A stretch of 64,000 bases of DNA from the NCBI GenBank assembly GCA_902805735.1, contig CADCTW010000161.1, forward strand, positions 1 to 64,000, in the 5' to 3' direction. Under the pieces are notes generated by a model. It was not told the DNA's origin, did no database searches, and saw nothing but the letters and a program-made list of their open reading frames with translations. Positions 35,801-50,267 of this stretch are shown one piece after another (positions within the stretch are counted from its first letter, which is position 1; the number at the start of each line of letters is the position of its first letter). This DNA is from an uncultured Gemmatimonadota bacterium. Lineage in GTDB: Bacteria > Gemmatimonadota > Gemmatimonadetes > Longimicrobiales > Longimicrobiaceae. The position numbers were made by a program, and so were the translations under genes.

Positions 35801-35867
35801 GACCGTTTTCCCAGCTTTCGTGTAGCACCCTGAGCTTGAACGTATGTTTCCCCCTCTCCAAACTCGA

Positions 35868-37886
35868 ATGACTCCTTCCAAGCAGCTCCTGGCGCTCGCG
35901 CTGGCCGCCACCTTCGCCGGCACCGCCTCCGCGCAGACGCCGGGCGTGGACACCACCAACTTCGACCGCAGCGTCCGCCCGCAGGACGACTTCTTCCGCT
36001 ACGTCAACGGCGGATGGCTGAAGCGCACGGAGATCCCCGCGGACCGCTCGTCGTACGGCTCGTTCGTGCAGCTTCGCGACCGCAGCGAGGAGGCGGTGCG
36101 CGCCATCGTGGAGGAAGCCGCCGCCGCGCGGGGCGCGCAGCCGGGCTCCGAGACGCAGAAGGTGGGCGACCTGTACGCGAGCTACATGGACTCGGCCCGC
36201 GTGGAGGCGGCCGGCATCGCCCCGCTGCGGCCGGAGCTGGCCCGCATCGCCGCCCTGCGCGACCGCGCGGCGCTCCCGGAGCTGTACGCGCGCCTGATGC
36301 GCATGGGCGTGCAGACGCCCATGGGCTTCGGCGTGGGGCAGGACGCGCGGCAGGCCACGCGCTACATCGCGTCCGTGGGCCAGAGCGGTCTGGGGCTTCC
36401 GGACCGTGACTACTACCTGAAGCAGGACCCCAAGCTGGCTGCCGCCCGCGCCGCCTACCAGACGTACCTGGAGACGGTGCTGCGCCTGGCCGGCGACCGC
36501 GACCCCGCCGCCGGGGCCCGCGCGGTGCTCGCCTTCGAGACCGCGCTGGCCGAGAAGCACTGGGACCGCGCCCGCAGCCGCGACCGCGAGGCCACGTACA
36601 ACCTGCGCACGGTCGCGCAGCTCGACTCCATCATGCCGGGCTTCTCCTGGGGCCGCTTCCTGCGGGCCGCCAACGCCGCGAGCACGCCCGGCGTGGTGGT
36701 GCGCCAGCCGGATTACCTCACGGCGATGAACCAGGTGATGGCGTCCACCCCGCTCCCCGTGCTGAAGCAGTACCTCACCGTGAAGCTGGTGGACAGCTAC
36801 GCGTCGGCGCTCAGCTCGCCCTTCGTGAACGCGCAGTTCGCCTACCGCGGCAAGGCGCTGCAGGGGCTGGAGACGAACCGTCCGCGCTGGAAGCGGGCCG
36901 TGGGCGCCGTAGAAGGGACGCTGGGCGAGGCGGCCGGCCGCCTGTACGTGCAGCGCAGCTTCCGCCCGGAGTCGCGCGAGCGGATGCAGCAGCTGGTGGG
37001 CAACCTGCGCGAGGCCTTCCGCGAGGCCATCGACTCGCTGGAGTGGATGAGCCCGGCCACCAAGGTGCAGGCGCAGGCCAAGCTGTCGAAGTTCAACGTC
37101 AAGATCGGCTACCCCGACCAGTGGCGTGACTACTCGGCGCTGGAGGTCCGCCGGGGTGACCTGGCCGGCAACATGATGCGCGCGGCCGAGTTCGGCTACA
37201 ACCGCATGGTGCGCCGCCTGGGTCAGCCCATCGACCGCGGCGAGTGGGGGATGACGCCGCAGACGGTGAACGCGTACTACTCGTCCACCATGAACGAGAT
37301 CGTGTTCCCGGCCGCCATCCTGCAGCCCCCCTTCTTCGACCCGAGCGCGGACGACGCGGTCAACTACGGCGGCATCGGCGCCGTGATCGGCCACGAGATC
37401 AGCCACGGCTTCGACGACCAGGGCCGCCGCTCCGACGGCGAGGGCAACCTGCGCGACTGGTGGACCGAGGCGGACAACGCCGCCTTCAAGACGCGCGCGG
37501 ACGCGCTGGTGGAGCAGTACGGCGCCTTCTCCCCGCTGGAGGGCCTCAACGTCAACGGCCGCCTCACGCTGGGCGAGAACATCGGTGACGTGAGCGGCCT
37601 GGCGATGGCGTACCGCGCCTACCGCAAGTCGCTGAACGGCCGCGAGGCGCCGGTCATCAACGGCCTCACGGGCGACCAGCGCTTCTTCATGGGCTGGGCC
37701 CAGGTGTGGCGCTCCCTGCAGCGCCCCGACGCCCTCCGCCAGCAGATCATGACCGACACGCACTCGCCCGGCGAGTACCGCGTGAACGGCGTGCTCCGCA
37801 ACATCCCGGAGTTCTACCGCGCCTACAACGTGCAGCCGGGCGACAAGATGTACCTGCCGCCTGAGAAGCGCGTGAAGATCTGGTAA
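35868..37886 (+). CDS. M13-family (neprilysin/PepO-like) metallopeptidase
   Basis: A 672-residue secreted zinc peptidase. A signal peptide (TPSKQLLALALAATFAGTAS) leads to the N-terminal M13 domain, starting NFDRSVRPQDDFFRYVNGGW. The catalytic domain carries VIGHEISHGFDDQG (HExxH) and LGENIGDVSGL, with the third zinc ligand glutamate. It ends EKRVKIW as is usual for M13. An ATG 24 bases upstream is also in frame. The 3' end of this gene occurs again twice in the next 1.6 kb. Confidence 0.95.
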   Translation: MTPSKQLLALALAATFAGTASAQTPGVDTTNFDRSVRPQDDFFRYVNGGWLKRTEIPADRSSYGSFVQLRDRSEEAVRAIVEEAAAARGAQPGSETQKVGDLYASYMDSARVEAAGIAPLRPELARIAALRDRAALPELYARLMRMGVQTPMGFGVGQDARQATRYIASVGQSGLGLPDRDYYLKQDPKLAAARAAYQTYLETVLRLAGDRDPAAGARAVLAFETALAEKHWDRARSRDREATYNLRTVAQLDSIMPGFSWGRFLRAANAASTPGVVVRQPDYLTAMNQVMASTPLPVLKQYLTVKLVDSYASALSSPFVNAQFAYRGKALQGLETNRPRWKRAVGAVEGTLGEAAGRLYVQRSFRPESRERMQQLVGNLREAFREAIDSLEWMSPATKVQAQAKLSKFNVKIGYPDQWRDYSALEVRRGDLAGNMMRAAEFGYNRMVRRLGQPIDRGEWGMTPQTVNAYYSSTMNEIVFPAAILQPPFFDPSADDAVNYGGIGAVIGHEISHGFDDQGRRSDGEGNLRDWWTEADNAAFKTRADALVEQYGAFSPLEGLNVNGRLTLGENIGDVSGLAMAYRAYRKSLNGREAPVINGLTGDQRFFMGWAQVWRSLQRPDALRQQIMTDTHSPGEYRVNGVLRNIPEFYRAYNVQPGDKMYLPPEKRVKIW

Positions 37887-37889
37887 ACT

Positions 37890-37967
37890 GCGGGGCTCAC
37901 ACAGAGACACAGAGGCACAGAGAAGACGGTTTTTCTCTGTGCCTCTGTGTCTCTGTGTGAGCCCCGC
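37890..37967. repeat. CACAGAG hairpin, extended (copy 17)
   Basis: The stem is extended by GCGGGG/CCCCGC outside the usual arms, so it is the longest perfect hairpin of the family. It lies three bases after the M13 stop. Confidence 0.92.
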
Positions 37968-38013
37968 TGTTTCACCGTAGCGTACACCTGGGGTCCTGCC
38001 TACATTCTTCTAC

Positions 38014-38331
38014 ATGAACGCTCCTGCCTCTACCCGCTCCGACGTTGTCGACCGCCTCCTGGCAGCCGAAGTGGAGATCCTCGGCCTGGGCGTGCGCAGG
38101 CTCGCGCTTTTCGGCTCGTTCGCGCGCTCGGAACCGCGCCCCGACAGTGACGTGGACGTGCTCGTGGAGTTCTCTCCGGGGCAGAAGAGCTTCGACCGCT
38201 TCATGCGCTTGTGCGACCTGCTGGAGGAGACTCTTGCGCGGCGCGTGGAAGTCGTGACGACGGAGGCGCTCAGCCCCCACATCGGACCTCACATCTTGGC
38301 CGAGGCGCAGGATGTCGTTCGAGCCGCGTGA
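38014..38331 (+). CDS. MntA-like nucleotidyltransferase antitoxin
   Basis: A 105-residue minimal nucleotidyltransferase. LFGSFARSEPRPDSDVDVLV has the GSx10DxD motif that binds Mg-ATP. In HepT/MntA modules this protein silences the HepT RNase by adding AMP units to it. The next gene, overlapping by 20 bases, is the HepT partner. The pair sits at the start of the accessory island. Confidence 0.9.
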   Translation: MNAPASTRSDVVDRLLAAEVEILGLGVRRLALFGSFARSEPRPDSDVDVLVEFSPGQKSFDRFMRLCDLLEETLARRVEVVTTEALSPHIGPHILAEAQDVVRAA

Positions 38332-38647
38332 TTACCTTCGGCACATCCTGACCGAGACCACTTACTTGCTGCGCGCCAGCGAGGCTGTTTCCGCCGAGGC
38401 CTTTCTGGCCGATGAAACACTCCGGCGAGCGTTCGTCCGCAGCTTGGAGGTGATCGGCGAAGCCACCAAAAACTTGCCCGAGAGCTTCCGTGCTGCCCAC
38501 CCGGAGATCGAGTGGCGCCCCATGGCACGGATGCGCGACCGCCTGATCCATGGCTACTTCGGAGTGGACCACGAACTCGTCTGGGAGGTCGTCCGGACGA
38601 AAGTGCCAGCGCTTCACGAGCGGCTGGAGCAAATCCTGACTGATTAG
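38312..38647 (+). CDS. HepT-like ribonuclease toxin (DUF86)
   Basis: A 111-residue HEPN-domain protein. The RX4HXY RNase motif is present as RDRLIHGY at about residues 71-78, after helices carrying RAFVRSLEVIGEATKNLP. It is expected to cut RNA and to be neutralised by the nucleotidyltransferase encoded upstream. The overlap of the two genes supports a coupled module. A fragment of the M13 gene end lies 46 bases after its stop. Confidence 0.9.
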   Translation: MSFEPRDYLRHILTETTYLLRASEAVSAEAFLADETLRRAFVRSLEVIGEATKNLPESFRAAHPEIEWRPMARMRDRLIHGYFGVDHELVWEVVRTKVPALHERLEQILTD

Positions 38648-38693
38648 CCCGGCCTCGACGTCAAACAAGCGCTGCACGCGATGTCCGTCCGTA

Positions 38694-38715
38694 GCAGCGC
38701 GTGAAGACCTGGTAA
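38694..38715 (+). repeat. fragment matching the 3' end of the M13 peptidase gene (second copy)
   Basis: The sequence GCGCGTGAAGACCTGGTAA matches the last codons and stop of the M13 gene (GCGCGTGAAGATCTGGTAA, ending 37886) with one difference. It stands between the two toxin-antitoxin modules. Confidence 0.7.
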
Positions 38716-38776
38716 CGACGGGTTTCGCTTTCGTATGCGTTATCTTGATCGCAGGCGTTCACCAGGGAGAGCAACG

Positions 38777-39031
38777 ATGCTGCGCACCTACAAGGCAGTG
38801 CTTCGCGGAGACCGCGTCGAATGGATCGACACTCCTCCGGAGCCCGCTCGGCCCACGCCCGTGCACATCACTCTCCTTGAGGATGGTCCGGAGCCCGTCG
38901 CATCGCGCGGCGCCGAGATGGGGCGCATCCTGGAGCAGCTCGCGCAGAGCGGTGGGCTCGCCGGAATCGACCCGCTGGAGTGGCAACGCGAAGTGCGTCA
39001 GGACCGCACGCTCCCTGGCCGCGAAGAGTGA
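38777..39031 (+). CDS. VapB-like antitoxin
   Basis: An 84-residue protein. The N-terminal part (MLRTYKAVLRGDRVEWIDTP) is a short beta region and the C-terminal part is acidic/helical (EWQREVRQDRTLPGREE), typical of small antitoxins paired with PIN toxins. A GGGAGAG sequence precedes the ATG at 38777. The stop overlaps the next start as TGATG. Its toxin partner is frameshifted, so this antitoxin may now be solitary. Confidence 0.7.
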   Translation: MLRTYKAVLRGDRVEWIDTPPEPARPTPVHITLLEDGPEPVASRGAEMGRILEQLAQSGGLAGIDPLEWQREVRQDRTLPGREE

Positions 39032-39394
39032 TGCTGCTGGATAGTGACATCCTCATTTACGCGGCGCAGCCGGAGCAAGCGAGCCTTCGCGACCTGATCG
39101 TGGAGCACACCCCCGCAGTGTCAGCGATCAGCGTGACCGAGGTGCTCGGGTTCTACCGATTACAGCCGGGGACCGGGTCCTGCTGGAGCAATTCTTTGCA
39201 CTGACCGAAGTCCTCCCATTATCGGATGTGATCGTCCAGCACGCGGTCAGGCGCCGGCAGCAGCGGCGTATGGGGCGCGGCGACAACATCGTGGCGAGCA
39301 CGGCTCTCGCGCACGGACGCACACGCTGGTCACGCGCAACACGCGCGACTTCCAGTGGATTCCTGACCTCGCGCTTCTCGATCCGTTGGCTTGA
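39031..39394 (+). pseudogene. frameshifted VapC-type PIN toxin
   Basis: It begins MLLDSDILIYAAQPEQ with the first PIN aspartates. The frame is lost near 39170, by loss of one base in the run CCGGGGACCGGG. The second frame reads EQFFALTEVLPLSDVIVQHA and GRGDNIVASTALAHGRT. It is lost again near 39320 by two extra bases in CGCACACG, after which RNTRDFQWIPDLALLDPL completes the domain. Corrected, the product would be 120 residues, which is normal for VapC. As written only 57 codons are open, so the toxin should be inactive. Confidence 0.85.
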
Positions 39395-39480
39395 ACGTGC
39401 TCCGCACCAGTGCGTAGTTCTACTGCGCCTACAACGTGCAACCAGGCCCCGCCGGAGCGGCGCGTGAAGATCTGGTAAAA
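39393..39480 (+). pseudogene. decayed fragment of the M13 peptidase gene 3' end (third copy)
   Basis: TTCTACTGCGCCTACAACGT and GCGCGTGAAGATCTGGTAA match 37811-37830 and 37868-37886 nearly base for base, with an internal deletion of about 18 bases. Weaker similarity upstream begins at GTGCTCCGCA. The copy is followed, as in the original, by a CACAGAG hairpin. Confidence 0.85.
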
Positions 39481-39486
39481 ACAGGG

Positions 39487-39553
39487 CTCACACAGAGGCA
39501 CAGAGGACACAGAGAAGATGTTCTATCTCTGTGCCTCCGTGTCTCTGTATGAG
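39487..39553. repeat. CACAGAG hairpin (copy 18)
   Basis: Both arms are present, with small differences including CTCTGTATGAG at the outer end. It repeats the position of copy 17 relative to the M13 gene end. Confidence 0.85.
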
Positions 39554-39724
39554 TACATTGCCGCGACGACGCTCTCCGCCTTTCGACCAGATACCCGGCG
39601 AGTAAGCTCCGCTGCAAGTGTGGCTATTGCGTCGTAGACCGGACGGACTTCCTCCCGCACAAGGCGGAAGTTCTGACCGATCAAGACTCAGAAAAGCGTG
39701 ACCTGCTCCCCGTTGTTAGTCCAT

Positions 39725-40588
39725 TTATTCTCTGACAGCTGTTCCAGCGGGGGTGGCAAGCGGAGCGACGCAGCCCTTTTGCTGGTCGGCCCACGCTCGG
39801 GGGGTGCAGCCCTCCAGTGAACTGTGCGGCCGCACTGTGTTGTAGTCCTCCTTCCAGTTCTCGATCACACGTTTCGCATCCGCCAGGCTCTGGAACCAGT
39901 GCAGATTCAGGCACTCGTCGCGGAAGCTGCCGTTGAAGCTTTCGATGAAGGCGTTCTGCACCGGCTTACCTGGCTGAATGTACTCCAGCTTCAGCCCCCG
40001 CGCATACGCCCAAGCGTCGAAGGCTCGGCTGGTGAATTCGCTCCCATTGTCGCTGATCAAGACCTCAGGCAATCCCCGCTCCTCCCGCAGTCGCTCCAGC
40101 ACCTCGATCACCGCCACCGAGGGGATCGAGTGCGCCACATATGCGCCCAGGCACTCTCGCGTGAACTCGTCGACGACGTTGAGGCAGCGGAAGGTACGTC
40201 CATTCGACAGCGTGTCCGACACGAAGTCCAGGCACCACCGCCGGTTCGTGGCCGCGATCGGCTCGCGCACCAGGCGAGGCGTCGCGCTCCGCTTCCGCTT
40301 CCCCTTGCGGCGCACCGCCAGCCCTTCGTCGCGGTAGAGGCGGTACACCCGCTTCTCGTTGACCTGCCAGCCCTCGCGTTTCAGCAGCACGTGGATGCGC
40401 CGGTAGCCCCAGCGGGGTCGGTCCGCGGCGTGCGCCCGGATCCGCTCGCGCAGGAGCGCCTGTTTGGGACGGCGACTACGGTAGCGCACACTCGCCGGCG
40501 GAAAGCCGGTCCAGCGCAGCGCCCGGCGCTCGGAGATGCCATGTGCGGCTTGCAACTGCGTGACGACCGCGCGCCGCTCGGAGGCCAT
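39725..40588 (-). CDS. IS3-family transposase OrfB (DDE integrase)
   Basis: A 287-residue integrase-type protein. The rve catalytic domain has the DDE residues in CLDFVSDTL, VLISDNGSEF and NAFIESFNGSFRDECL. The HTH_21-like stretch RPRWGYRRIHVLLKREG precedes it. The ATG at 40588 overlaps the OrfA stop (TGATG). In this family the active product is often an OrfAB fusion made by -1 frameshifting, and a GGGAAAAGG sequence lies just before the OrfA stop. The stop codon lies inside the left inverted repeat. Confidence 0.93.
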   Translation of the reverse strand: MASERRAVVTQLQAAHGISERRALRWTGFPPASVRYRSRRPKQALLRERIRAHAADRPRWGYRRIHVLLKREGWQVNEKRVYRLYRDEGLAVRRKGKRKRSATPRLVREPIAATNRRWCLDFVSDTLSNGRTFRCLNVVDEFTRECLGAYVAHSIPSVAVIEVLERLREERGLPEVLISDNGSEFTSRAFDAWAYARGLKLEYIQPGKPVQNAFIESFNGSFRDECLNLHWFQSLADAKRVIENWKEDYNTVRPHSSLEGCTPRAWADQQKGCVAPLATPAGTAVRE

Positions 40589-40854
40589 CACGATCCTTTT
40601 CCCAGCAGCTCCTTCACCACCATCACATTCAGCGCCTGGTCCGCGACGATTCGCTTGAGCCGGGCGTTCTCCTCCTCGAGCTGCTTCAGGCGGCGCGCCT
40701 CCGAGACGCCCATCCCGCCGTACTTCTTCTTCCAGGCATAGTAGGTGTCGCGACTGATCCCATGCCTGCGGCACAGGTCGTCCACCTTGGCACCCGCCTC
40801 GCCCTCTTGGAGCACAGCGATGATCTGCTCTTCCGTGAACCGGCTCTTCCGCAT
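40588..40854 (-). CDS. IS3-family transposase OrfA
   Basis: An 88-residue DNA-binding protein. A helix-turn-helix (FTEEQIIAVLQEGEAG, DLCRRHGISRDTYYAWKKKY) is followed by a leucine-zipper-like helix (RRLKQLEEENARLKRIVADQ) as in the HTH_Tnp_1 family. It begins the transposase operon just inside the right inverted repeat. It ends in the frameshift window shared with OrfB. Confidence 0.95.
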   Translation of the reverse strand: MRKSRFTEEQIIAVLQEGEAGAKVDDLCRRHGISRDTYYAWKKKYGGMGVSEARRLKQLEEENARLKRIVADQALNVMVVKELLGKGS

Positions 40855-41255
40855 CTCTCCTCCTCTGGGTAGATCCCGCTGAGTCGGAGAATAACTGGAT
40901 CAACTTCGAGGGGGCAGGTCAAGCGGATTTGGGATGCTGCTGCGGAGGGTGTCGCTGACTTCATCGCCCCTCACGGCTGCACGCGACGAAGCTTTGAAGT
41001 TGGACTCGAGTATCCGGCAGAGGGAACTCTGATGCTCAACATCTTACGAGGCGGGCGCGGGTCGAGTTGAGTATCTCAGCCGTTCACAGCTTCCCCGTCC
41101 CACCAGCCACTCACAGCACCTGCGGGGTAGCGAAACGCGCGTTGCAACGGCGCCGAGGCGTTCTCGCTTCAGTGCCGTTTAGCTTCGAAGACGAAGCTTG
41201 CGGGTGTCGTGCCGTGTGTCTATTGTGGGGGTAGTATTGGGCGAATCCCTATCCT

Positions 41256-43535
41256 ATGAGCGATATGTTCACTGACGACAAACAGTTCGAAGATGAGGTT
41301 CGACGGATTGCACGCCTTCTCTGGCCTAGTGCTGAATACGGCGGAGCGGTAATGGAAGACGGCCGAGAACGGGACGGGATTTTCGAGAGCGAAGAATTTG
41401 TGAATCTCATTGAGTGTACCGTCTCGCCATCGAAAAAGAAGGCCGAGGAGGACTCCGAAAAACTCTCAAGATTGATTCGAAAATACGAGGTCAAGCACCC
41501 GACTAAACATGTAAAGGGATGGTTTATTACTCTCAAAGAACCTACTGCGGATCAGAAGACGTCTGTGGAGCGGAGGAAGGAGCGAATCGTAGCAATTTCA
41601 TACGATCAATTCCGATCAAAACTTGTCGACGCAAGAACGTACCTTACCCTTCGCGCCAAACACGCGTTTGGTAGCGTGCGAGACCCTGAAACAGGGGCCG
41701 CTGAACTTGTGCTAGATTATGTGCCGCTGGATATTCTCGACCGAGAAGGTGGTACGTACAGCGTCAAGGTGATATCCGAAGGGTTAAACCTCGGTGGCCG
41801 ATTTATGTTAATGGGCGACTATGGTGCTGGGAAAAGCTCAACAATGCGTGAGATCTTTCACGTTTCAGCCAAACGTTTCTGGGATCTGAAGACCCTTAGG
41901 TTCCCTGTTATGTTGAATCTGCGAGACCACCACGGGCAGACTGATCCTAGCGAAGCTCTGGAACGGCACGCGCGCAAAATTGGGTTTTCTTCGCCGACTC
42001 ATCTTGTTCGTGCTTGGCGCGCAGGGTACGCGGAGTTGATGCTTGACGGATTCGACGAGATCGCAACTGCGGGCTGGGCCGGACGTACCAAGAAATTGAA
42101 GGTACTGCGTTATCGCTCGATGGAGTTGATTCGTAGCTTTGTACGCGAGTCCCCCGCCACAACAGGCATAATCATCGCCGGCCGAGAGCACTTTTTCGAC
42201 AACGAGGTAGAGCTATCCGATGCTTTAGGAATTTCCAACGCATTCCGTAGGCTGACTCTCAGCGAGTTCTCTGCAGATCAGGTCACGACGTACCTCCGCC
42301 GTCGGGGGTGGAAAGACACTGTGCCCGAGTGGCTTCCTTCTCGGCCCTTGTTGCTGGGCTACTTGGCCTCGCGAGGTCTCCTTCAGGAAACGCTCTGGAC
42401 CGAGTTGGGTTCGAGTCCGGCAGTCGGGTGGGATGGCCTTCTACAGCGGGTTAGCGAGCGTGAGGCTGAGATCGAGGCCGGGATTGATGCCGACACCGTC
42501 CGAACGTTGATCGAAAGACTGGCTACGTTGGCTCGTAGCTCCGTTGATGGACTTGGGCCGTTGCTGCCGGACCAGATCATTGGTGCGTTCTCGGATGTAT
42601 GTGGTTACACCCCAGACGACCGGGGCGCGGTGCTCCTTCAACGTTTGCCAGGACTGGGTGGGCACAGTTCAGAGGATGGTGCCCGGGTGTTCATAGATCG
42701 AGATCTGGCCGCCGTGGCAAGTGCTGGCGACGTGCTCCGGTACATCGATAGCCCTTTCGTTGCTGAACTAGATAGTTCGAACTGGCAGGCTGCATTACCC
42801 CCGCTGGGGACTGAGTTAATTGCGCATCGTTGTGGGATACAGAGGAGCAGTCCTTCAAAGTTAGGCGCGGCTCTAAGGTATGTTGCTGAGCAACCTGATC
42901 AGGGAACTCTCGCGGCGGACGTAGCAATGGTGATCCAGCAAATGGGTTTCGCCTACTCAGACGCGAAGGTTTTCATTCGTGGAGCAATGGTACCGGAATT
43001 GATTCTCTCCAAGCATGCGGGAGACACGAGCCGCATCGAGTTTCAGGATTGCGTCGTGATCAGGCTAGATGTGGAACACGATGCTCCTGCGGCAGCCATG
43101 CCCGTTTTCGTCCGGTGCTACTTCACCCGAGTCGAAGGGCGGAGTGGGACCGATGACATGCCCCCCACGAAATTCGTGGACTGTGACTTCGAGAGCTTCG
43201 AAAACGCGGCTGAGACCACCAATGCACTCATGGAGCTTCCTCTTCCAACCGGGAGCAAAGTTCTCTTGACCGCTTTAAAGAAGCTATATGCGCAGAGCGG
43301 ATCCGGACGGCGAGAATCCGCGATGTACAGAGGATTGGATCACCGAGCCCGCGAGCATGTGACGGGTGTTCTGGAGTTGCTTAGGAAAGAAGGGTTCGCC
43401 GTGCGGGCTCGCATTGCAGATCGTACCATTTGGATGCCCAGCAGGGATACGGAGGTTAGGCGCCGTGCTTTGAAAATGCTCGCTGCTCCTAGTGCTGCCG
43501 CGGACCCTCTACTTCGCGAAGCGGCGACGCTGTAA
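41256..43535 (+). CDS. nuclease-like domain fused to NACHT ATPase (candidate anti-phage STAND protein)
   Basis: A 759-residue protein. Residues 10-125 look like a PD-(D/E)xK restriction-endonuclease fold: D40 in ERDGIF, E53 in LIECTV, then the lysine cluster SKKKAEED at 59-66. Residues about 175-400 are a NACHT/STAND ATPase, with Walker A GDYGAGKSS (187-195) and Walker B LMLDGFDE (261-268). Residues about 610-680 show pentapeptide-like strands (FQDCVV, FVRCYF, FVDCDF) and the C-terminus looks winged-helix. The base composition is clearly less GC-rich than that of its neighbours. No partner gene is evident. Similar architectures are known anti-phage sensors; function here is inferred. Confidence 0.78.
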   Translation: MSDMFTDDKQFEDEVRRIARLLWPSAEYGGAVMEDGRERDGIFESEEFVNLIECTVSPSKKKAEEDSEKLSRLIRKYEVKHPTKHVKGWFITLKEPTADQKTSVERRKERIVAISYDQFRSKLVDARTYLTLRAKHAFGSVRDPETGAAELVLDYVPLDILDREGGTYSVKVISEGLNLGGRFMLMGDYGAGKSSTMREIFHVSAKRFWDLKTLRFPVMLNLRDHHGQTDPSEALERHARKIGFSSPTHLVRAWRAGYAELMLDGFDEIATAGWAGRTKKLKVLRYRSMELIRSFVRESPATTGIIIAGREHFFDNEVELSDALGISNAFRRLTLSEFSADQVTTYLRRRGWKDTVPEWLPSRPLLLGYLASRGLLQETLWTELGSSPAVGWDGLLQRVSEREAEIEAGIDADTVRTLIERLATLARSSVDGLGPLLPDQIIGAFSDVCGYTPDDRGAVLLQRLPGLGGHSSEDGARVFIDRDLAAVASAGDVLRYIDSPFVAELDSSNWQAALPPLGTELIAHRCGIQRSSPSKLGAALRYVAEQPDQGTLAADVAMVIQQMGFAYSDAKVFIRGAMVPELILSKHAGDTSRIEFQDCVVIRLDVEHDAPAAAMPVFVRCYFTRVEGRSGTDDMPPTKFVDCDFESFENAAETTNALMELPLPTGSKVLLTALKKLYAQSGSGRRESAMYRGLDHRAREHVTGVLELLRKEGFAVRARIADRTIWMPSRDTEVRRRALKMLAAPSAAADPLLREAATL

Positions 43536-43545
43536 TCGAACCCAG

Positions 43546-43761
43546 GTGCAGGTGGCTATACAATTGCGGCGCACGCCGGAGCGACGGCTCGAGCACGCTG
43601 ACCTGCACGCCGACCACCTGTTCACGGACGGCATGCGCCTGACAGCTGTGATCGACTGGGCGGACGCCCTGGTATGCGGTCCGTACTACGAGCTGCCCGC
43701 GCTGCACCTGAGTACCTTTGGCGGCCGCACCGCGCGCCTGCGCGAGTTCCTGGCGGGCTAG
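43546..43761 (+). pseudogene. C-terminal fragment of an aminoglycoside-phosphotransferase-like gene
   Basis: About 70 codons encode the catalytic end of a kinase-fold protein: LEHADLHADHLFTDG (H-x-D-L-H Brenner loop) and LTAVIDWADALVCGPYYELP (DFG-like metal site). The N-terminal two thirds are missing. The frame begins within ten bases of the NACHT gene stop, so the gene appears truncated by whatever brought in that gene. Confidence 0.7.
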
Positions 43762-44112
43762 GGTGGGCGGTGGGCCCCGAATCTGAGTGGCGAGCCATGA
43801 CTATGGCGCTGCGGCACCATTCGACTTAGGGAGGCACTACCCCCCAGCGTACTGGGCAGCGCCGCTACACTCGAGGGTCTTGCCGCCCAGATCTGGCAGC
43901 TCTGAGCGCAAACGACGTCCGTGGACAGGCAACGCGCCGAGAACCCCAACCGTGCGCTGCAAGCAAGGCGGGGCCGGTCTGGGTGCGGGATGGTAGATCC
44001 AGCGCCGCGGTGGGAAAAAATCACCCGGAGTCCGACAGAGTGCTCGTAGGAGCGTTCGCGGATGCAGCTCACAGGTCGATGGCTGCATCAACACCACTAC
44101 GAGCGAGGAGAA
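43762..44112. other. intergenic region, no gene seen
   Basis: A stretch of 351 bases between the kinase fragment and the small CxxC protein. No frame looks coding and no strong palindrome was found. It could be decayed sequence of the island edge. Confidence 0.5.
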
Positions 44113-44340
44113 ATGGCTCTGTACAACAACAGCGCGTATATTACGATGTCTGACAGCGCTGAGTTCGACAAGCTGCATTCGCCTGGTGCCACCACGCCGC
44201 ACTCCGGTATCTACCGGTGCGAAGGCTGTGCGAAGGAGATCGCCGCGAACCAGGGCAATCCCCTGCCGCCGCAGAACAATCACCAGCACACCTCGGCGCA
44301 GGGTACCATCCGTTGGCGGATGATCGTCTACGCGCAGTAG
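44113..44340 (+). CDS. small CxxC protein of unknown function
   Basis: A 75-residue protein with a conserved-looking core SGIYRCEGCAKEIAANQGNP followed by LPPQNNHQHT and RWRMIVYAQ at the end. One CxxC pair and three histidines or more could bind a metal. I recall similar short proteins annotated only as hypothetical. A GAGGAG sequence stands five bases before the ATG at 44113. It is the last gene of the accessory island. Confidence 0.65.
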   Translation: MALYNNSAYITMSDSAEFDKLHSPGATTPHSGIYRCEGCAKEIAANQGNPLPPQNNHQHTSAQGTIRWRMIVYAQ

Positions 44341-44437
44341 ATTTATCAAGGAGGGGCGGGTGCAGTAAGCCATTCTTAAGGGCCGCCATCCTGATCCAGT
44401 TAGCGACGGCGCGCGGCTGAGCAACGGCGGTAGATAC

Positions 44438-44523
44438 CACATAGAGGCACAGAGGCACGGGGATTCCTCTATCTCTGTGCCTCTGTGCCTCTGTGCCTCT
44501 GTGCCTCTGTGTCTCTGTGTGAG
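44438..44523. repeat. CACAGAG hairpin with expanded right arm (copy 19)
   Basis: The right arm contains four successive CTCTGTGC units before CTCTGTGTCTC; the left arm is shorter and diverged (CACATAGAGGCACAGAGG). It lies beside the 3' end of the permease gene. Confidence 0.88.
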
Positions 44524-44536
44524 CTTCTTTGCCGGG

Positions 44537-47248
44537 CTACACGCCGCGCAGGACGACGGCGGGGTCGACGGAGGCGGCGCGGCGGGCCGGGAGCCAGGCG
44601 GCGGCTATGGCGACTAGCGCCACTCCGAGCGCCGCGATGGCGGTGACCGTCGGCAGCGCCACGGTCGAGAATGCGTCGTCGGAGGCGATCAGGGAGCGCA
44701 GGCCGAGCAGGCTGACGGGAAGGCCCAGCGCGAGCCCGACCGCGCTCAGCCGGACTCCATCGGCGACGAAGCGCCGCGCGATCTGGCGGCCGTGCGCGCC
44801 CACGGCGATGCGCACGGCGATCTCCCCGGTGCGCTGGCTGACGGAGAACGCCACCACGGCATACAGGCCGATGGCGGAAAGAAGGAGCGCCGTCAGCCCC
44901 GCCCAGAGGAGGCCGCCCGCCATGGGCGCCATCTCCCTTCTCTGCTCTTCCTTGACGCCGGCGAGCGTCTGGACACCGATCACCATCCCCGGCGCCTCCC
45001 TCTGCGCCACGCTCCGCAGGGTGGCGGCGAGCGATTCCGCGCGCCCGGCGGTGCGGACGAGCACCGCGCCCGGCAGGCCGGCGGTGTCGGCCGGAAGGAA
45101 GATCCGCCTTTGCTCGCCCGGCTTCGGCGGCACGAACCCCGGGTCGTCGACCACGCCCACGATGACCAGCGTGCCCGCGCCCGCCGCGCCCGTCTCCGCC
45201 GCGCGGAGACGGCGGCCCACGGGATCGGCGCCGGGCCACAGCGCGCGCGCCAGGTCGGCGTCGATCAGGGCGGCGGACTCCCGGGCGCCGGGTCCCGCCG
45301 CGAGGTCGTCCGGCCGGAAGCCGCGGCCGCGGACGACGGGAATCGCCATCGTTGCGAGGTACCCGGCCTCCACCCGCTTGCCCCACAGCTCCACCGGGCC
45401 CGGAGCCGCGCCACCCCGGCCGGCGGGGTCCACGGAGTAGGCGCCCATCCCCTCCAGCGGCGCCCACTCCGTCACCACCGCCTCCACGCCGGGGGTGTCC
45501 CGCACCCGCTCCGCCACCCGCAGCACGGAGGCGCGCAGGCGCCGCGTCTCCTCCGCCACGACCTCCGGCGGCCCCGAGCGGGGGATGTGCGTGCGGACGG
45601 AGAGCGTCGCCAGCCGGTCGTCGAGCGCGGTGGCGCCGCCCTCGCGAAGCTCTGTGCGAAGGATCAGGAGCATCGCGGTGAGGAGGACCACCAGCGGCAT
45701 GGTGAAGGCGATCTGCGCCACCACCAGGGCGCGCTGCGGCCGGCCACGCGCCGCCGCGATGTGGGAGGAGGCATCGCGCAGCACCCCCGCCAGACCCAGG
45801 CGGGTGGCGTGGAGCGCGGGCGAGAGCCCGAAGAGGAGGCCGGCGGTGAGGGCGACGCCGAAGGTGAAAGCCACCGCCGGGGCCGTGATCTCCGGATTCA
45901 TCGGGAGCGGGGGGAGGAAGCGGACCACGGCCCAGATGGCCAGCTCGGCCAGCCCGAGCGCCGCGGCCCCGGCCGCGCAGGCGAGCACGGCGTTCTCCGT
46001 GAGGAGCTGGCGGAGGATCCGCCCGCGGCCGGCGCCCAGCGACAGGCGCACGGCGATCTCCTGGCGCCTCGCCACCGCCAGGCCGGTGAGGAGCGCGCTC
46101 ACGTTGGTGCAGGTGACCAGGAGCACCAGCATCGCCAGCAGCCCCACCCCGGCCGACATGCCCCAGACCTCCCCCTCGAAGGTGGGGCTTCCGTTCTTGT
46201 CGAGGAGCGGGACCACCTCGGCGGAGGGGCGCACGGGGAGCTGCTCGGGGATGGTCGCGCTTGGCGCCTGGGCCGCGGCGGCGCGGGCGGCGACCACCCG
46301 CACGGCCCCCGACGCCGCCTCGGCGGTTACGCCGGGGCGGAGGCGGGCAGCCGCCCAAAAGGACGCCGGGACGCCCCGCATCACCGCTGCGCGGGCCGCG
46401 AGGGGCATCCAGAGCTGCCACGCGTCGCTCCCGTCGTCCACCCCATTGAACTCCTCCGGCGCCACCCCCACCACGGTGACGGGAACGCCGTTGATCGCGA
46501 CGGCGCGGCCGATCACCCCCGGGTCCGCCTCGAAGAGCTGCTTCCAGGCCGCGTGCCCGATCACCGCCACGAGGGCGGCGGCGGGGTCGCCCGCGGGCCG
46601 CAGGCCGGAGCCCAGCGCCGGGCGCACGCCCAGCACGGGGAAGTAGTCGTCCGTGACGAAGGTGACCATCGCGTCCAGGCCGCGGCGCTCCACCTCGCTG
46701 CCCGCGTCCAGCGCCGCCATCGCGCTGGACCATCCGGCCACCGCCGCGAAGGGGCCGCTCAGCTTGCGGTACTCGAGGAACTCGTCCTCGGAGAATCCGC
46801 GCGCGACGGGCCCGGAGGCTCGCCCCTCCTGGCTGCCGCGGATGCGCACCAGGTCGTCCGCGCGCGCGATGCCGGGGGGCGGCCGCACGGCGAACCCTTG
46901 CACGAAGGAGAACATGATCGTGCTGAGGCAGAGCCCCACCGCCAGCACGCCGAACATGGTGAGCGTCGTTCCCGGCCTGCGCGCGAACTGGCGAAGCGCG
47001 AAGCGCGCGTCGGCCACCAGCGCGTCCAGGGCGCCCGTCCCCCGCGCCAGCCGCCCCTCCTCCTGCAGGTACGTCACGTTGCCGAACTCGCGCCGCGCCT
47101 CGCGCGCCGCCTGTTCGGCGGAGAGGCCGCGCGCCATGAGGCGCTCGGCGGCGCGCTCCAGGTGCTGCGCCATCTCTTCCTGCATCTCGCGCTCGATGCG
47201 GCGGCGCAGCACGACGGAGCGGATCCAGAGGCGGACGCGGTTCAGCAT
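44537..47248 (-). CDS. ADOP-type ABC permease (FtsX/MacB-like)
   Basis: A 903-residue inner-membrane protein. An N-terminal helical prefix (about 1-75, with QEEMAQHLERAAERLMARG and AREARREFGNVTYLQEE) precedes two copies of a MacB periplasmic domain plus a three-helix FtsX domain (helices near 105, 365-460 and 790-890). This is the layout of the acidobacterial duplicated orphan permease family. No ABC ATPase gene is adjacent, as is usual for these orphans. It may drive export or signal transmission across the envelope. The start is the ATG at 47248. Confidence 0.9.
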   Translation of the reverse strand: MLNRVRLWIRSVVLRRRIEREMQEEMAQHLERAAERLMARGLSAEQAAREARREFGNVTYLQEEGRLARGTGALDALVADARFALRQFARRPGTTLTMFGVLAVGLCLSTIMFSFVQGFAVRPPPGIARADDLVRIRGSQEGRASGPVARGFSEDEFLEYRKLSGPFAAVAGWSSAMAALDAGSEVERRGLDAMVTFVTDDYFPVLGVRPALGSGLRPAGDPAAALVAVIGHAAWKQLFEADPGVIGRAVAINGVPVTVVGVAPEEFNGVDDGSDAWQLWMPLAARAAVMRGVPASFWAAARLRPGVTAEAASGAVRVVAARAAAAQAPSATIPEQLPVRPSAEVVPLLDKNGSPTFEGEVWGMSAGVGLLAMLVLLVTCTNVSALLTGLAVARRQEIAVRLSLGAGRGRILRQLLTENAVLACAAGAAALGLAELAIWAVVRFLPPLPMNPEITAPAVAFTFGVALTAGLLFGLSPALHATRLGLAGVLRDASSHIAAARGRPQRALVVAQIAFTMPLVVLLTAMLLILRTELREGGATALDDRLATLSVRTHIPRSGPPEVVAEETRRLRASVLRVAERVRDTPGVEAVVTEWAPLEGMGAYSVDPAGRGGAAPGPVELWGKRVEAGYLATMAIPVVRGRGFRPDDLAAGPGARESAALIDADLARALWPGADPVGRRLRAAETGAAGAGTLVIVGVVDDPGFVPPKPGEQRRIFLPADTAGLPGAVLVRTAGRAESLAATLRSVAQREAPGMVIGVQTLAGVKEEQRREMAPMAGGLLWAGLTALLLSAIGLYAVVAFSVSQRTGEIAVRIAVGAHGRQIARRFVADGVRLSAVGLALGLPVSLLGLRSLIASDDAFSTVALPTVTAIAALGVALVAIAAAWLPARRAASVDPAVVLRGV

Positions 47249-47323
47249 TCTCTTTTACCCTTGCACTAGACAGTCGAGTGGTCACCTACAGGATGAACGT
47301 TCACCACTAGGCTGTCAAGTGAT

Positions 47324-47395
47324 CTCACACAGAGACACAGAGGCACAGAGGAAAGATCGTCATCTCTGTGCCTCTGTGCCTCGGTGCTCCGGTGA
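47324..47395. repeat. CACAGAG hairpin (copy 20)
   Basis: A full left arm and a right arm that decays at its outer end (GCCTCGGTGCTCCGGTGA). It lies in the divergent interval between the permease and the secreted protein gene. Confidence 0.8.
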
Positions 47396-47409
47396 TTACA
47401 TTATGCGGG

Positions 47410-47988
47410 ATGCGTACTCTAATCATCCTCCTCGCCCTCTTCGCGGCGCCCGCCGCGGCGCAGGAGTTCGACTGCCGCGCCACCGGCTCGCTTCCCGCGG
47501 CCGTGCAGCCGTTCGTGGAGCGCGGAAGCTGCGCGATCGCCCTGGAGCGCGGCGACCTGGACCGCGATGGGCGCTCCGACTACCTGCTCGTGCTGGAGCG
47601 CCCGGCGCCCGATCCGGAAGAAGGCCGTCTCCGCTCGCTCCTGGTGATCACCGCGTCCGGACGCCTCGCCGCGAAGGGCGATGGAGTCGTGCTCTGCTCG
47701 CGCTGCGGCGGTCTCTGGGGAGACCCGCTCGAAGGGGTCGAAGTGCGCCCGGGGCAGTTCACGGTCAGCCACTACGCGGGCTCCGCGTGGCGCTGGCGCC
47801 TGGACTTCACCTTCGCCTACTCCCGCCGCGATCGTGCCTGGCAGCTCGTGCGGATCTACGAGGTGAGCTTCCACACCGGCGACCCGGAGAAGACCATGAA
47901 AATCCGCGTGTCGCGCCCTCCCCGCCATTTCGGCAAGATCGACCTGCGGAGGTTCGACGCGGAGAAGTGGATGCAGAGAGGTAGTTGA
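47410..47988 (+). CDS. secreted protein with calcium-loop-like motif
   Basis: A 192-residue protein with a signal peptide (MRTLIILLALFAAPAAAQ). The segment ERGDLDRDGRSDYLLVLERP resembles the calcium-binding DxDxDG loop of FG-GAP/VCBS-type repeats. Two cysteines in LCSRCGG and a long C-terminal basic stretch follow. The function is unknown. The ATG at 47410 begins the signal peptide; an upstream start would read through a repeat element. Confidence 0.65.
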   Translation: MRTLIILLALFAAPAAAQEFDCRATGSLPAAVQPFVERGSCAIALERGDLDRDGRSDYLLVLERPAPDPEEGRLRSLLVITASGRLAAKGDGVVLCSRCGGLWGDPLEGVEVRPGQFTVSHYAGSAWRWRLDFTFAYSRRDRAWQLVRIYEVSFHTGDPEKTMKIRVSRPPRHFGKIDLRRFDAEKWMQRGS

Positions 47989-47989
47989 T

Positions 47990-48054
47990 CTCACACAGAG
48001 GCACAGAGGCACAGAGATGAAGTTCTTTCTCTGTGCCTCTGTGCCTCTGTGTGA
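47990..48054. repeat. CACAGAG hairpin, full (copy 21)
   Basis: Complete arms between two convergent genes, starting two bases after the stop of the secreted protein gene. Confidence 0.9.
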
Positions 48055-48064
48055 CCCCCGCTTT

Positions 48065-49093
48065 TCAGAGCCTGTCCGCGATCGCCGCGATCGCCTCGGC
48101 GTCGCGCCAGGCGGCTTCCAGGGCCCGGAGCTCGCCCTGCATGGCCAGGCGCTCGGACTCCTCGTGGAGCGCCATCTCCAGGGCGAGGGCGCCGCGGCCA
48201 TCCAGCTTCGGCGGGGTGAACGCCTTGTCGCGCCGCTCGCCGCGCACCCAGCCCGCCATCTCGCGCCAGCCGCGCGGGTTGAAGCCGAGGTCGGGGACGT
48301 CCAGGCGCACCACTTTGGATGCGGTGGCGCGCAGGTAGTCTTCGGAGGAGCCGCTCTGAGTCAGGCGCGACAGCGCGTCCGACACCTTGTCCGCGGACGC
48401 GCCAGACGAGTTGGCGTCGAGGATGGCGCGGGAGAGCACGCGGCGCGCGGTCTCGCCGCGCAGGAGGAGCGAGGGTACGTGCCAGTGCGCGCCGTCCCGC
48501 TCGGCGGGGAGGATGCCGGGGATGTGGAGGGCGAGGTCGCCCTGGTCGTCGGGCTGCAGCCAGGAGCGGGTGAGATGGCCGCGGCGGATGACGATGGGCT
48601 GACCGGCCGGCGAGCGCTCCCCCGGGATGTGGTGGACCACGCGGAGCCCCTGCGCCACGCGCGCCGCCCGGACGCCCAGGATCGAGAACGGATAGAACTG
48701 GACGTGCGCCGCGGTGTGCAGCACGAAGCTGGCGGCCATGGCCGGCGCGTTCCTCCACCGCCGCCGCTGGAGCTCCCGCCCGTACCGCCACGCCGCCAGC
48801 TCGCCGGGCACCGCCTGACCCACCCGGATGAGCTGCGTCCCGTCCGGCAGCCGCGCCAGCCCCACGTTCTCCGACTGCACGCGCAGCCGCGCATCCACGA
48901 AGGAACGCTCCGCCGCCTCCACCGGCTCCCAGCGCTCCTCCAGCGGCCCCAGGTTCCAGCGCGCGCAGTGCGGGCACACGGCCCACAGCCGCCCCCGCCC
49001 CGCGTCGAACGCCACCGTGCGCCCCACCGCGAACCCTTCGATGGCCTCGTTGGTCCCCAGATCGGCCGTGCAGTAGATGCAGGTGCGGTACAC
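48065..49093 (-). CDS. conserved protein with N-terminal zinc ribbon, unknown function
   Basis: A 342-residue protein. Two CxxC pairs (CIYC at 5-8 and CPHC at 40-43) make a zinc ribbon. The remainder is mixed, with QRRRWRNAPAMAASFVLHTA near residue 110 and a histidine-containing HHIPGERSPAGQPIVI. I do not recognise the family. The start is GTG at 49093, with GGAGGAG seven bases upstream; that purine run is the end of a CACAGAG repeat arm. It follows recF on the same strand. Confidence 0.65.
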   Translation of the reverse strand: MYRTCIYCTADLGTNEAIEGFAVGRTVAFDAGRGRLWAVCPHCARWNLGPLEERWEPVEAAERSFVDARLRVQSENVGLARLPDGTQLIRVGQAVPGELAAWRYGRELQRRRWRNAPAMAASFVLHTAAHVQFYPFSILGVRAARVAQGLRVVHHIPGERSPAGQPIVIRRGHLTRSWLQPDDQGDLALHIPGILPAERDGAHWHVPSLLLRGETARRVLSRAILDANSSGASADKVSDALSRLTQSGSSEDYLRATASKVVRLDVPDLGFNPRGWREMAGWVRGERRDKAFTPPKLDGRGALALEMALHEESERLAMQGELRALEAAWRDAEAIAAIADRL

Positions 49094-49101
49094 GGCACTC
49101 C

Positions 49102-49130
49102 TCCTCTGTGTCTCCGTGCCTCTGTGTGAG
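49102..49130. repeat. CACAGAG single arm supplying a ribosome-binding site (copy 22)
   Basis: On the minus strand this arm follows the recF stop and ends CAGAGGAGGAG, a strong Shine-Dalgarno sequence for the GTG start at 49093. Confidence 0.85.
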
Positions 49131-49139
49131 CCCGCCGTT

Positions 49140-50267
49140 TCAGAGCGGCGAGACCACCCCGTCGCGGATCGTCCAGCGCGGGAGGGTGTCGCCGTGGACC
49201 TGGAAATCGGTGGGCTTGGGGGAGGTGAGGATCACCTGGCCGCCCTCCTCGCCCTCGATCCACTCCACGATGCGCTGCGAGCGGCCGGGGTCCAGCTCGG
49301 CGAAGACGTCGTCCAGCAGGATCACCGACTCGCGGCCGCGCGTCTGGCGGATGGTCTCCGCCTCCACCATGCGCAGGGCGATGGCGGCGGTGCGCTGCTG
49401 CCCGCCCGAGCCGTACGTGCGCAGCTCCAGCGCAGTTCCATCCGGCGCATGCGTGGCGAAGCGGAGGTCGTCGCGATGGGGGCCGGCCAGCGTCATCCCG
49501 CGGCGCTGCTCGCGTTCGGCCACGCGCGCCAGCTTGTCGCGAAAGGCCGCGGCGATGGCGGCCACGGAGGGCGCGTCGCCGCCGATCTCCACGGAGGGAG
49601 CCAGGGCCAGGGTGCCGGGCTGCCCTCCGGCCACGCGGGCGTAGTGCGCCGCGAAGCTCGCCGCGCGGTCGGCCACCCAGCGGGCGCGCGCCTCCAGCAC
49701 GCGGCTCCCCGCCGCCACCAGCGGGTCGTTCCACAGCTCCACCAGGGGGGCGGGGCTGCCCTGGCGCAGCAGCGTGTTGCGCTGGAAGAGCGCCTGCCGG
49801 TAGCGCTGCAGCGCGCCCAGGTACCCCGGCTCCGCCAGCGAAAGCACGATGTCCAGGAAGCGCCGCCGCTCCCCCGGCCCGCCGGCCACGATCTCCACGT
49901 CGGAGGGCGAGAAGATGACCGCGCCCACCTTGCCCAGGGCGTCGCCCAGCCGCTCGGGCTCGGCGCCGCCCACCGTCACCTTCTTCTTCTTGCGGCGACG
50001 CTCGAAGGCGGCGGCCAGCTTCCGCTCGGCGCCGTCGTCGCCGCGCAGGGTGCCCTCCACGCGGAACACCTCTTCGCCGAAGCGCACCAGCTGCTCGTCC
50101 GGCGCGCCGCGGAAGGAGCGAAAGATCTCCAGGTAATAGATGGACTCCAGCAGGTTCGTCTTCCCCTGGCCGTTGTCGCCCACGATGGCGACGCCCTGCG
50201 GCGGGATTTCGAGCTCCTGCTCCGCGAAGTTGCGGTAGTTGCGGAGGTGGAGGCGAGCGAGGTGCAA
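49140..50267 (-). CDS. recF: DNA replication and repair protein RecF
   Basis: A 375-residue SMC-like ATPase that loads RecA at gaps with RecO and RecR. It has Walker A GDNGQGKTNLLESIYYL near residue 30, the ABC-type signature YGSGGQQRTAAIAL, and Walker B VILLDDVFAELD. The best start is TTG at 50267 (HLARLHLRNYRNFAEQEL follows), with no obvious Shine-Dalgarno sequence. Unlike in many bacteria it is not next to dnaN or gyrB here; ogt is upstream. Confidence 0.93.
   Translation of the reverse strand: MHLARLHLRNYRNFAEQELEIPPQGVAIVGDNGQGKTNLLESIYYLEIFRSFRGAPDEQLVRFGEEVFRVEGTLRGDDGAERKLAAAFERRRKKKKVTVGGAEPERLGDALGKVGAVIFSPSDVEIVAGGPGERRRFLDIVLSLAEPGYLGALQRYRQALFQRNTLLRQGSPAPLVELWNDPLVAAGSRVLEARARWVADRAASFAAHYARVAGGQPGTLALAPSVEIGGDAPSVAAIAAAFRDKLARVAEREQRRGMTLAGPHRDDLRFATHAPDGTALELRTYGSGGQQRTAAIALRMVEAETIRQTRGRESVILLDDVFAELDPGRSQRIVEWIEGEEGGQVILTSPKPTDFQVHGDTLPRWTIRDGVVSPL

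What the first reader, a model, noticed from the sequence alone, without database searches (positions are those of the whole stretch)
41256..43535. Candidate defence gene: restriction-like nuclease domain fused to a NACHT ATPase with short beta-solenoid sensor
The order is a D...ECT...KKK nuclease-like domain, a complete NACHT module, pentapeptide-like strands and a winged-helix end. Its lower GC, nearby toxin-antitoxin modules, IS and gene fragments suggest a horizontally gained defence island. NACHT proteins with nuclease effectors are known phage sensors, but the C-terminal solenoid/winged-helix sensor is not one I can match to a described type.
Basis: partly seen in the sequence, partly recalled or inferred. 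Interest (0 to 1): 0.7.

Follow-up and report, generated by a model that had tools for sequence, protein, structure and literature searches.

The report
Phage-borne nuclease–NACHT immune switch protein
This gene most likely encodes a bacterial relative of our NOD-like immune receptors that, on sensing a phage, assembles and switches on a DNA-cutting domain; its relatives travel as single cargo genes in temperate phages, and its short sensor end matches no catalogued NACHT sensor type.

Summary
Window 41256-43535 is one intact 759-aa ORF of low GC (0.55 against 0.70 for the window). Its parts are an N-terminal nuclease-like domain, a NACHT module, a short pentapeptide-like beta-solenoid and a winged helix. 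The NACHT call is weak in Pfam, but secure from 12 full-length aligned homologues and an AlphaFold2 model whose best fold matches are NLRP2, Avs3 and NLRC4. The N domain alone folds as a PD-(D/E)XK nuclease (best hits R.BspD6I/Nt.BspD6I, Cdn1, Can2, Card1), and E12, D40, E53 and K62 are invariant. The solenoid matches pentapeptide-repeat proteins (E 7e-6).

Full-length homologues (23-39% identical) lie in a temperate Pseudomonas phage, an Erwinia plasmid and virus contigs, mostly beside phage structural genes. In one P2-like phage the gene sits between portal gpQ and gpA, a known anti-phage hotspot. It is absent from the nine other genomes searched in its genus; the surrounding 10 kb is a variable region.

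Best reading: a lone, horizontally acquired anti-phage receptor that activates its nuclease by NACHT oligomerisation. It works like Avs and bNACHT25, with a C-terminus that matches no Pfam NACHT-associated family. New variant of a known kind. Function, trigger and cleavage are untested. "Defence island" is only partly right.

The parts
41256..43535 (+). nuclease-NACHT-solenoid-wHTH gene, 759 aa, intact
   Evidence: full-length homologues
41256..41660 (+). N-terminal PD-(D/E)XK nuclease-fold domain, residues 1-135; invariant E12, D40, E53, K62
   Evidence: AF2 of the domain alone, pLDDT 82.6; Foldseek PDB hits R.BspD6I2/Nt.BspD6I, Cdn1, Can2, Card1, Avs3; conservation
41733..42365 (+). NACHT ATPase module, about residues 160-370
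   Evidence: Pfam NACHT in 12 of 12 members; fold matches NLRP2, Avs3, NLRC4, NLRP3
41814..41837 (+). Walker A GDYGAGKS, residues 187-194 (K193)
   Evidence: G187, G190, G192, K193, S194 invariant
42042..42059 (+). Walker B LDGFDE, residues 263-268
   Evidence: D264-E268 invariant
42378..42950 (+). helical extension after the NACHT module, residues 375-565
   Evidence: AF2 secondary structure
42963..43205 (+). short beta-solenoid (pentapeptide-like), about residues 570-650
   Evidence: AF2 strands 572-627; profile hits to pentapeptide-repeat proteins; Pentapeptide_4 in one homologue, E 0.002
43245..43445 (+). C-terminal winged-helix domain, residues 664-730, invariant Q680, G684, R685, G693, P728
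   Evidence: AF2; BlaI repressor weak hit; conservation
37887..48068 (.). variable interval: no DNA of 90 bases or more shared with the same position in relative G251
   Evidence: flanks M13 peptidase (85-87%) and 48069-49243 (78-84%) conserved, interval not
38014..38647 (+). MNT nucleotidyltransferase/HepT toxin-antitoxin pair in the same interval
   Evidence: Pfam NTP_transf_2 E 5e-12, HepT-like E 2e-27
39700..40915 (-). IS3-family element upstream (ends approximate)
   Evidence: rve_3, rve and HTH_21 in the transposase; imperfect terminal repeats read by eye
43492..43761 (+). C-terminal remnant of an APH-family phosphotransferase
   Evidence: Pfam APH E 1e-8, profile positions 160-217 of 239

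Best explanation
It is a single-protein anti-phage receptor of the bacterial NACHT (NLR-related) type. The C-terminal beta-solenoid plus winged helix detects something made by an infecting phage or by the damage it causes. This releases the NACHT ATPase, which binds ATP and oligomerises. The clustered N-terminal PD-(D/E)XK domains then become active and cut DNA, stopping phage growth and probably killing or arresting the cell. The gene spreads as lone cargo of temperate phages and plasmids and reached this genome horizontally. Shown here: architecture, conserved active-site-like and ATPase residues, predicted fold of the parts, mobility, phage-borne homologues. Inferred: DNA as substrate, oligomerisation, sensing by the C-terminus, and protection.
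For: Nuclease fold of the N domain with four invariant catalytic-type residues. NACHT identified by family, motifs and fold. Same architecture in 12 full-length sequences. Homologues in a temperate Pseudomonas phage, an Erwinia plasmid and virus contigs, beside terminase, portal, holin, spanin and tail genes. One (L017) lies between gpQ and gpA, the P2 hotspot holding old and tin (PMC9122126). Patchy distribution: of 395 genomes of its phylum only its own has a real match. The analogous nuclease-NACHT proteins bNACHT25/32 protect E. coli, degrade DNA on infection and need the nuclease aspartate (PMC12169576).
Against: No experiment on any family member was found. No PADLOC model matches meaningfully. 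The canonical ExK lysine is replaced by T/S (K62 lies nine residues after E53), and Pfam's nearest name for two homologues is an 'inactive' NACHT-associated REase (E 0.004). No other complete defence system lies beside it here.
Confidence: 0.78

Rival explanations
1. The N-terminal domain is a catalytically dead nuclease fold that binds DNA or a partner, and the protein protects by another route, for example by recruiting a separate effector or acting as a sequestering oligomer.
For: The position of the canonical lysine is T/S. Two members match the Pfam model NA-iREase1 (NACHT-associated inactive restriction endonuclease) at best E 0.004.
Against: E12, D40, E53 and K62 are invariant in all 13 N domains, down to about 21% identity, which a dead domain would not need. 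Nt.BspD6I, among the best fold matches, is an active nickase; PDB entries for its E418A and D456A mutants are among the hits.
Confidence: 0.12
2. It is a phage superinfection-exclusion or lysogeny-maintenance factor whose target is a regulatory step of related temperate phages, with the winged helix acting as a DNA-binding repressor-like part, rather than a broad receptor.
For: Most homologues are carried by temperate phages. A winged helix is conserved at the C-terminus.
Against: A NACHT ATPase plus nuclease fold is the architecture of triggered receptors. The gene sits at different sites in unrelated phages, on a plasmid and in a chromosomal variable region without phage genes, not with repressor genes.
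Confidence: 0.12
3. A decayed or non-functional leftover in this genome: real family, but no longer active here.
For: Neighbours include a frameshifted PIN gene, an APH remnant and an IS. The Solirubrobacteraceae copy has lost its C-terminus next to an IS256-type transposase.
Against: The window copy is full length with every invariant residue kept.
Confidence: 0.08

Closest known systems
bNACHT25 / bNACHT32 (clade 6 bacterial NACHT proteins; PMC12169576)
   Same: N-terminal PD-(D/E)XK nuclease, central NACHT, C-terminal sensor, single protein with anti-phage activity
   Different: those carry an NCH1 helical C-terminal domain; here the C-terminus is a pentapeptide-like solenoid plus winged helix and no NACHT-associated C-terminal Pfam family matches
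Avs3 and the Avs family (STAND NTPases; PDB 8dgc)
   Same: nuclease effector, STAND ATPase and C-terminal sensor in one chain; Avs3 is a top fold match for the whole model and also appears for the N domain
   Different: 8dgc chains are about 2000 residues against 759 here; the solenoid plus winged helix (about 160 residues) replaces the large Avs sensor; no Avs family match of note (E 0.05 in one member)
R.BspD6I / Nt.BspD6I and Pfam RE_AlwI
   Same: closest nuclease fold to the N domain (E 2e-4); RE_AlwI is the only Pfam hint for the window domain (E 0.045)
   Different: restriction enzymes with DNA-recognition domains, no NACHT
Card1, Can2, Cdn1 (type III CRISPR ancillary nucleases)
   Same: same nuclease fold in the effector
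   Different: activated by cyclic oligoadenylate through CARF domains; none here
DS-8 (PMC13092281) and bNACHT clade 14
   Same: single-protein NACHT defence
   Different: DS-8 has a metallophosphatase effector; clade 14 has SNaCT C-termini and no recognised effector

Membership tests
Bacterial NACHT (NLR-related, bNACHT) proteins | central NACHT module with Walker A and NACHT-type DGxDE Walker B | tested here: met
Bacterial NACHT (NLR-related, bNACHT) proteins | N-terminal effector domain | tested here: met
   PD-(D/E)XK fold; activity not tested
Bacterial NACHT (NLR-related, bNACHT) proteins | C-terminal sensor | tested here: inconclusive
   a distinct C-terminal solenoid plus winged helix exists; that it senses is inference
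Bacterial NACHT (NLR-related, bNACHT) proteins | protects against phage | not testable with these tools
   needs a phage challenge
bNACHT clade 6 (bNACHT25-like) | NCH1 C-terminal helical domain | tested here: inconclusive
   no NCH-type Pfam match; NCH2 and NCC-H are in the library, the presence of an NCH1 model was not checked, and bNACHT25 itself was not at hand for comparison
Avs (AVAST) | match to an Avs family model | tested here: not met
   no meaningful PADLOC or NCBIfam match
PD-(D/E)XK nucleases | core alpha-beta fold with conserved acidic residues | tested here: met
   fold hits; E12, D40, E53 invariant
PD-(D/E)XK nucleases | (D/E)xK lysine at its standard place (fold members exist that lack it) | tested here: not met
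   T or S at position 55; invariant K62 lies nine residues after E53. So the claim is 'nuclease fold with an altered motif', not 'canonical motif'
Pentapeptide-repeat beta-solenoid | profile match to solved pentapeptide-repeat proteins | tested here: met
   2w7z E 7e-6, 2xt2 2e-4, 6fls 1e-3; short, and below the Pfam cut-off in the one member hit

The most novel reading that the evidence does not exclude
The solenoid plus winged-helix end is a new class of NACHT sensor that reads a DNA-like phage signal: the pentapeptide solenoid could mimic or track a DNA-bound protein while the winged helix binds DNA or a DNA end. This family would then detect phage nucleoprotein rather than a coat, terminase or portal protein.
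Probability: 0.12. Interest if true: 0.65.

Novelty: new variant of a known kind. Interest (0 to 1): 0.5.

Why it matters
It adds a coherent, phage-carried family of nuclease-NACHT receptors with a compact sensor that matches no catalogued NACHT C-terminal family, found in at least a Pseudomonas phage, an Erwinia plasmid, an actinobacterial MAG and the genome of this window. Because the whole system is one gene of about 2.3 kb with clear active-site and ATPase residues, and homologues come from phages of tractable hosts, both protection and trigger are directly testable.

Tried and rejected
PDB sequence search with the single protein: no hit; with the N-domain profile: only chance hits to RNase P protein.

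PADLOC and NCBIfam hits (mad8, SspF, DS8_antiphage) are weak and, where coordinates are shown, lie on the P-loop region. DS-8 is a metallophosphatase-NACHT protein (PMC13092281) and was rejected as the same system.

Gifsy GiPD474 (PMC12724215) was checked as a prophage ATPase defence: ParA/MinD-like, rejected.

E. coli genomes searched with the P2-like homologue's DNA: no match, so no E. coli copy could be used.

Repeating the virus scan with the larger alignment gave the same loci. The genus search with the DNA just downstream found no shared insert.

Comparison with the bNACHT25 sequence was not possible: the founding 2023 paper is not held.

Full report
Observation. Window 41256-43535 (+) is a single 759-residue ORF. 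Its GC is 0.55 in a window of 0.70, essentially the lowest stretch of that length in the window, and the frame is not a chance event: 0 of 2000 Markov shuffles stayed open. Pfam sees only a NACHT domain at residues 184-349, E 6e-5 and just under the curated cut-off. A single-sequence PDB search finds nothing.

Family. Full-length homologues were found in Pseudomonas phage Haddon (37%), an Erwinia persicina plasmid (25%) and, through the four-sequence alignment, twelve IMG/VR contigs, some of them near-duplicates of each other. A Solirubrobacteraceae MAG holds a 47% identical copy that has lost its C-terminus; an IS256-type transposase ORF follows directly (the transposase family is my reading of its sequence). 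Twelve sequences align end to end with 46 invariant positions. Two subgroups are visible: one with RERDG...IEATT (window, Haddon, L008, L009, L005) and one with NFDxV...IExTK.

N domain. AlphaFold2 on the 13-row alignment of this domain gives pLDDT 82.6. The best solved-structure matches are nucleases of the PD-(D/E)XK fold: R.BspD6I small subunit (E 2e-4), Nt.BspD6I, Cdn1, Can2, Card1, the nuclease part of Avs3, BstEII and MspJI. E12, D40, E53 and K62 are invariant, D66 nearly so. The D40-E53 spacing of 13 equals that of D456-E469 in Nt.BspD6I. Residue numbers E418 and D456 come from the PDB titles, while E469 is from memory and the residue-level alignment was not available, so this correspondence is inference. 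Among weak Pfam hits, NA-iREase1, RE_AlwI and Card1 endonuclease point the same way. The lysine of the usual ExK motif is not at its place; K62 may stand in for it. I take the domain as an active nuclease, with DNA the likely substrate by analogy.

NACHT module. All 12 members match Pfam NACHT. The whole-chain model (pLDDT 82.2, pTM 0.67) best matches human NLRP2, Avs3 bound to phage terminase, NLRC4 and NLRP3.

C-terminus. The model shows paired short strands at 572-627, then a winged helix at 664-730. A profile of this region hits solved pentapeptide-repeat proteins (2w7z E 7e-6; MCBG-like 2e-4) and, for the last part, a penicillinase repressor at E 0.07. No NACHT-associated C-terminal family matches, though Pfam holds such families (NCH2, NCC-H). 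This part is also the least conserved (17-31% to the window protein, against 21-48% for the N domain), as expected of a part that meets changing ligands.

Where relatives live. Neighbours were listed and a selection annotated with PHROGs. L011 lies between terminase/portal and a holin. L012 lies beside a UmuC-like polymerase with a tail gene further on, and L014 beside ORFs that look like the same genes. L009 lies beside an Rz spanin and a tail collar gene, L019 beside a tail fibre gene with terminase further on, and L008 in a phage with a transposase. L017 lies between portal gpQ and the gpA-type replication protein; that cos-proximal interval is the P2 hotspot that holds old and tin and from which further anti-phage systems were validated (PMC9122126). 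In every virus locus the gene has lower GC than its surroundings. It is therefore usually a lone cargo gene of temperate phages.

Where this copy lives. The gene is absent from the nine other searched genomes of its genus and, apart from three short weak matches, from the 395 sampled genomes of its phylum. The flanks (M13-type peptidase ending 37886; gene from 48069) are conserved in G251 on one contig, about 16 kb apart, while nothing in the 10-kb interval between them is shared. The interval also holds an MNT/HepT pair, a PIN gene with two frameshifts, an IS3 element and an APH remnant. The 3' tail of the peptidase gene is repeated at 39396-39478, and a similar second tail occurs in relative G273, which suggests repeated insertion at that gene's end. 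This is a variable insertion region; 'defence island' overstates it.

Mechanism and verdict. By anatomy and by analogy with bNACHT25/32, whose nuclease residue is needed for protection and which degrade DNA on infection (PMC12169576), the likely working is: sensing by the C-terminus, ATP-dependent NACHT assembly, nuclease activation, arrest or death of the infected cell. Steps after the architecture are inferred. It belongs with NACHT receptors by the features that could be tested, differs from described clades in its C-terminus, and is best called a new variant of a known kind.

Noticed in passing
37885-37972, 39477-39553, 44433-44524, 47320-47386, 47991-48054 (and many other contigs of the genome): A short palindromic element, CTCTGTGCCTCTGTGTCTCTGTGTGAG with its reverse complement, recurs at gene ends in the window, at dozens of places in this genome and in relatives. 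It looks like a dispersed intergenic hairpin, possibly a terminator or small mobile repeat.
   Followed up: partly
39396-39479: A second copy of the 3' tail of the M13 peptidase gene (35844-37886), 73-90% identical, with the hairpin after it; relative G273 also has a second tail copy at 88%. Suggests repeated insertion at this gene end.
   Followed up: partly
38980-39430: A VapC-like PIN toxin gene broken by two frameshifts (pieces in three frames); possibly a pseudogene, possibly assembly errors.
   Followed up: no
L005:8001-10721: The 47% identical homologue in a Solirubrobacteraceae MAG has lost its sensor end next to an IS256-type transposase.
   Followed up: partly
L017:10389-11636: Unknown 415-aa low-GC gene (GC 0.33) beside the NACHT homologue in the P2-like hotspot; only PHROG 9605 of unknown function matches. 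Another candidate defence gene.
   Followed up: no
L012:2892-4238: Low-GC (0.39) 448-aa gene about 1.2 kb upstream of the NACHT homologue, with no PHROG match.
   Followed up: no
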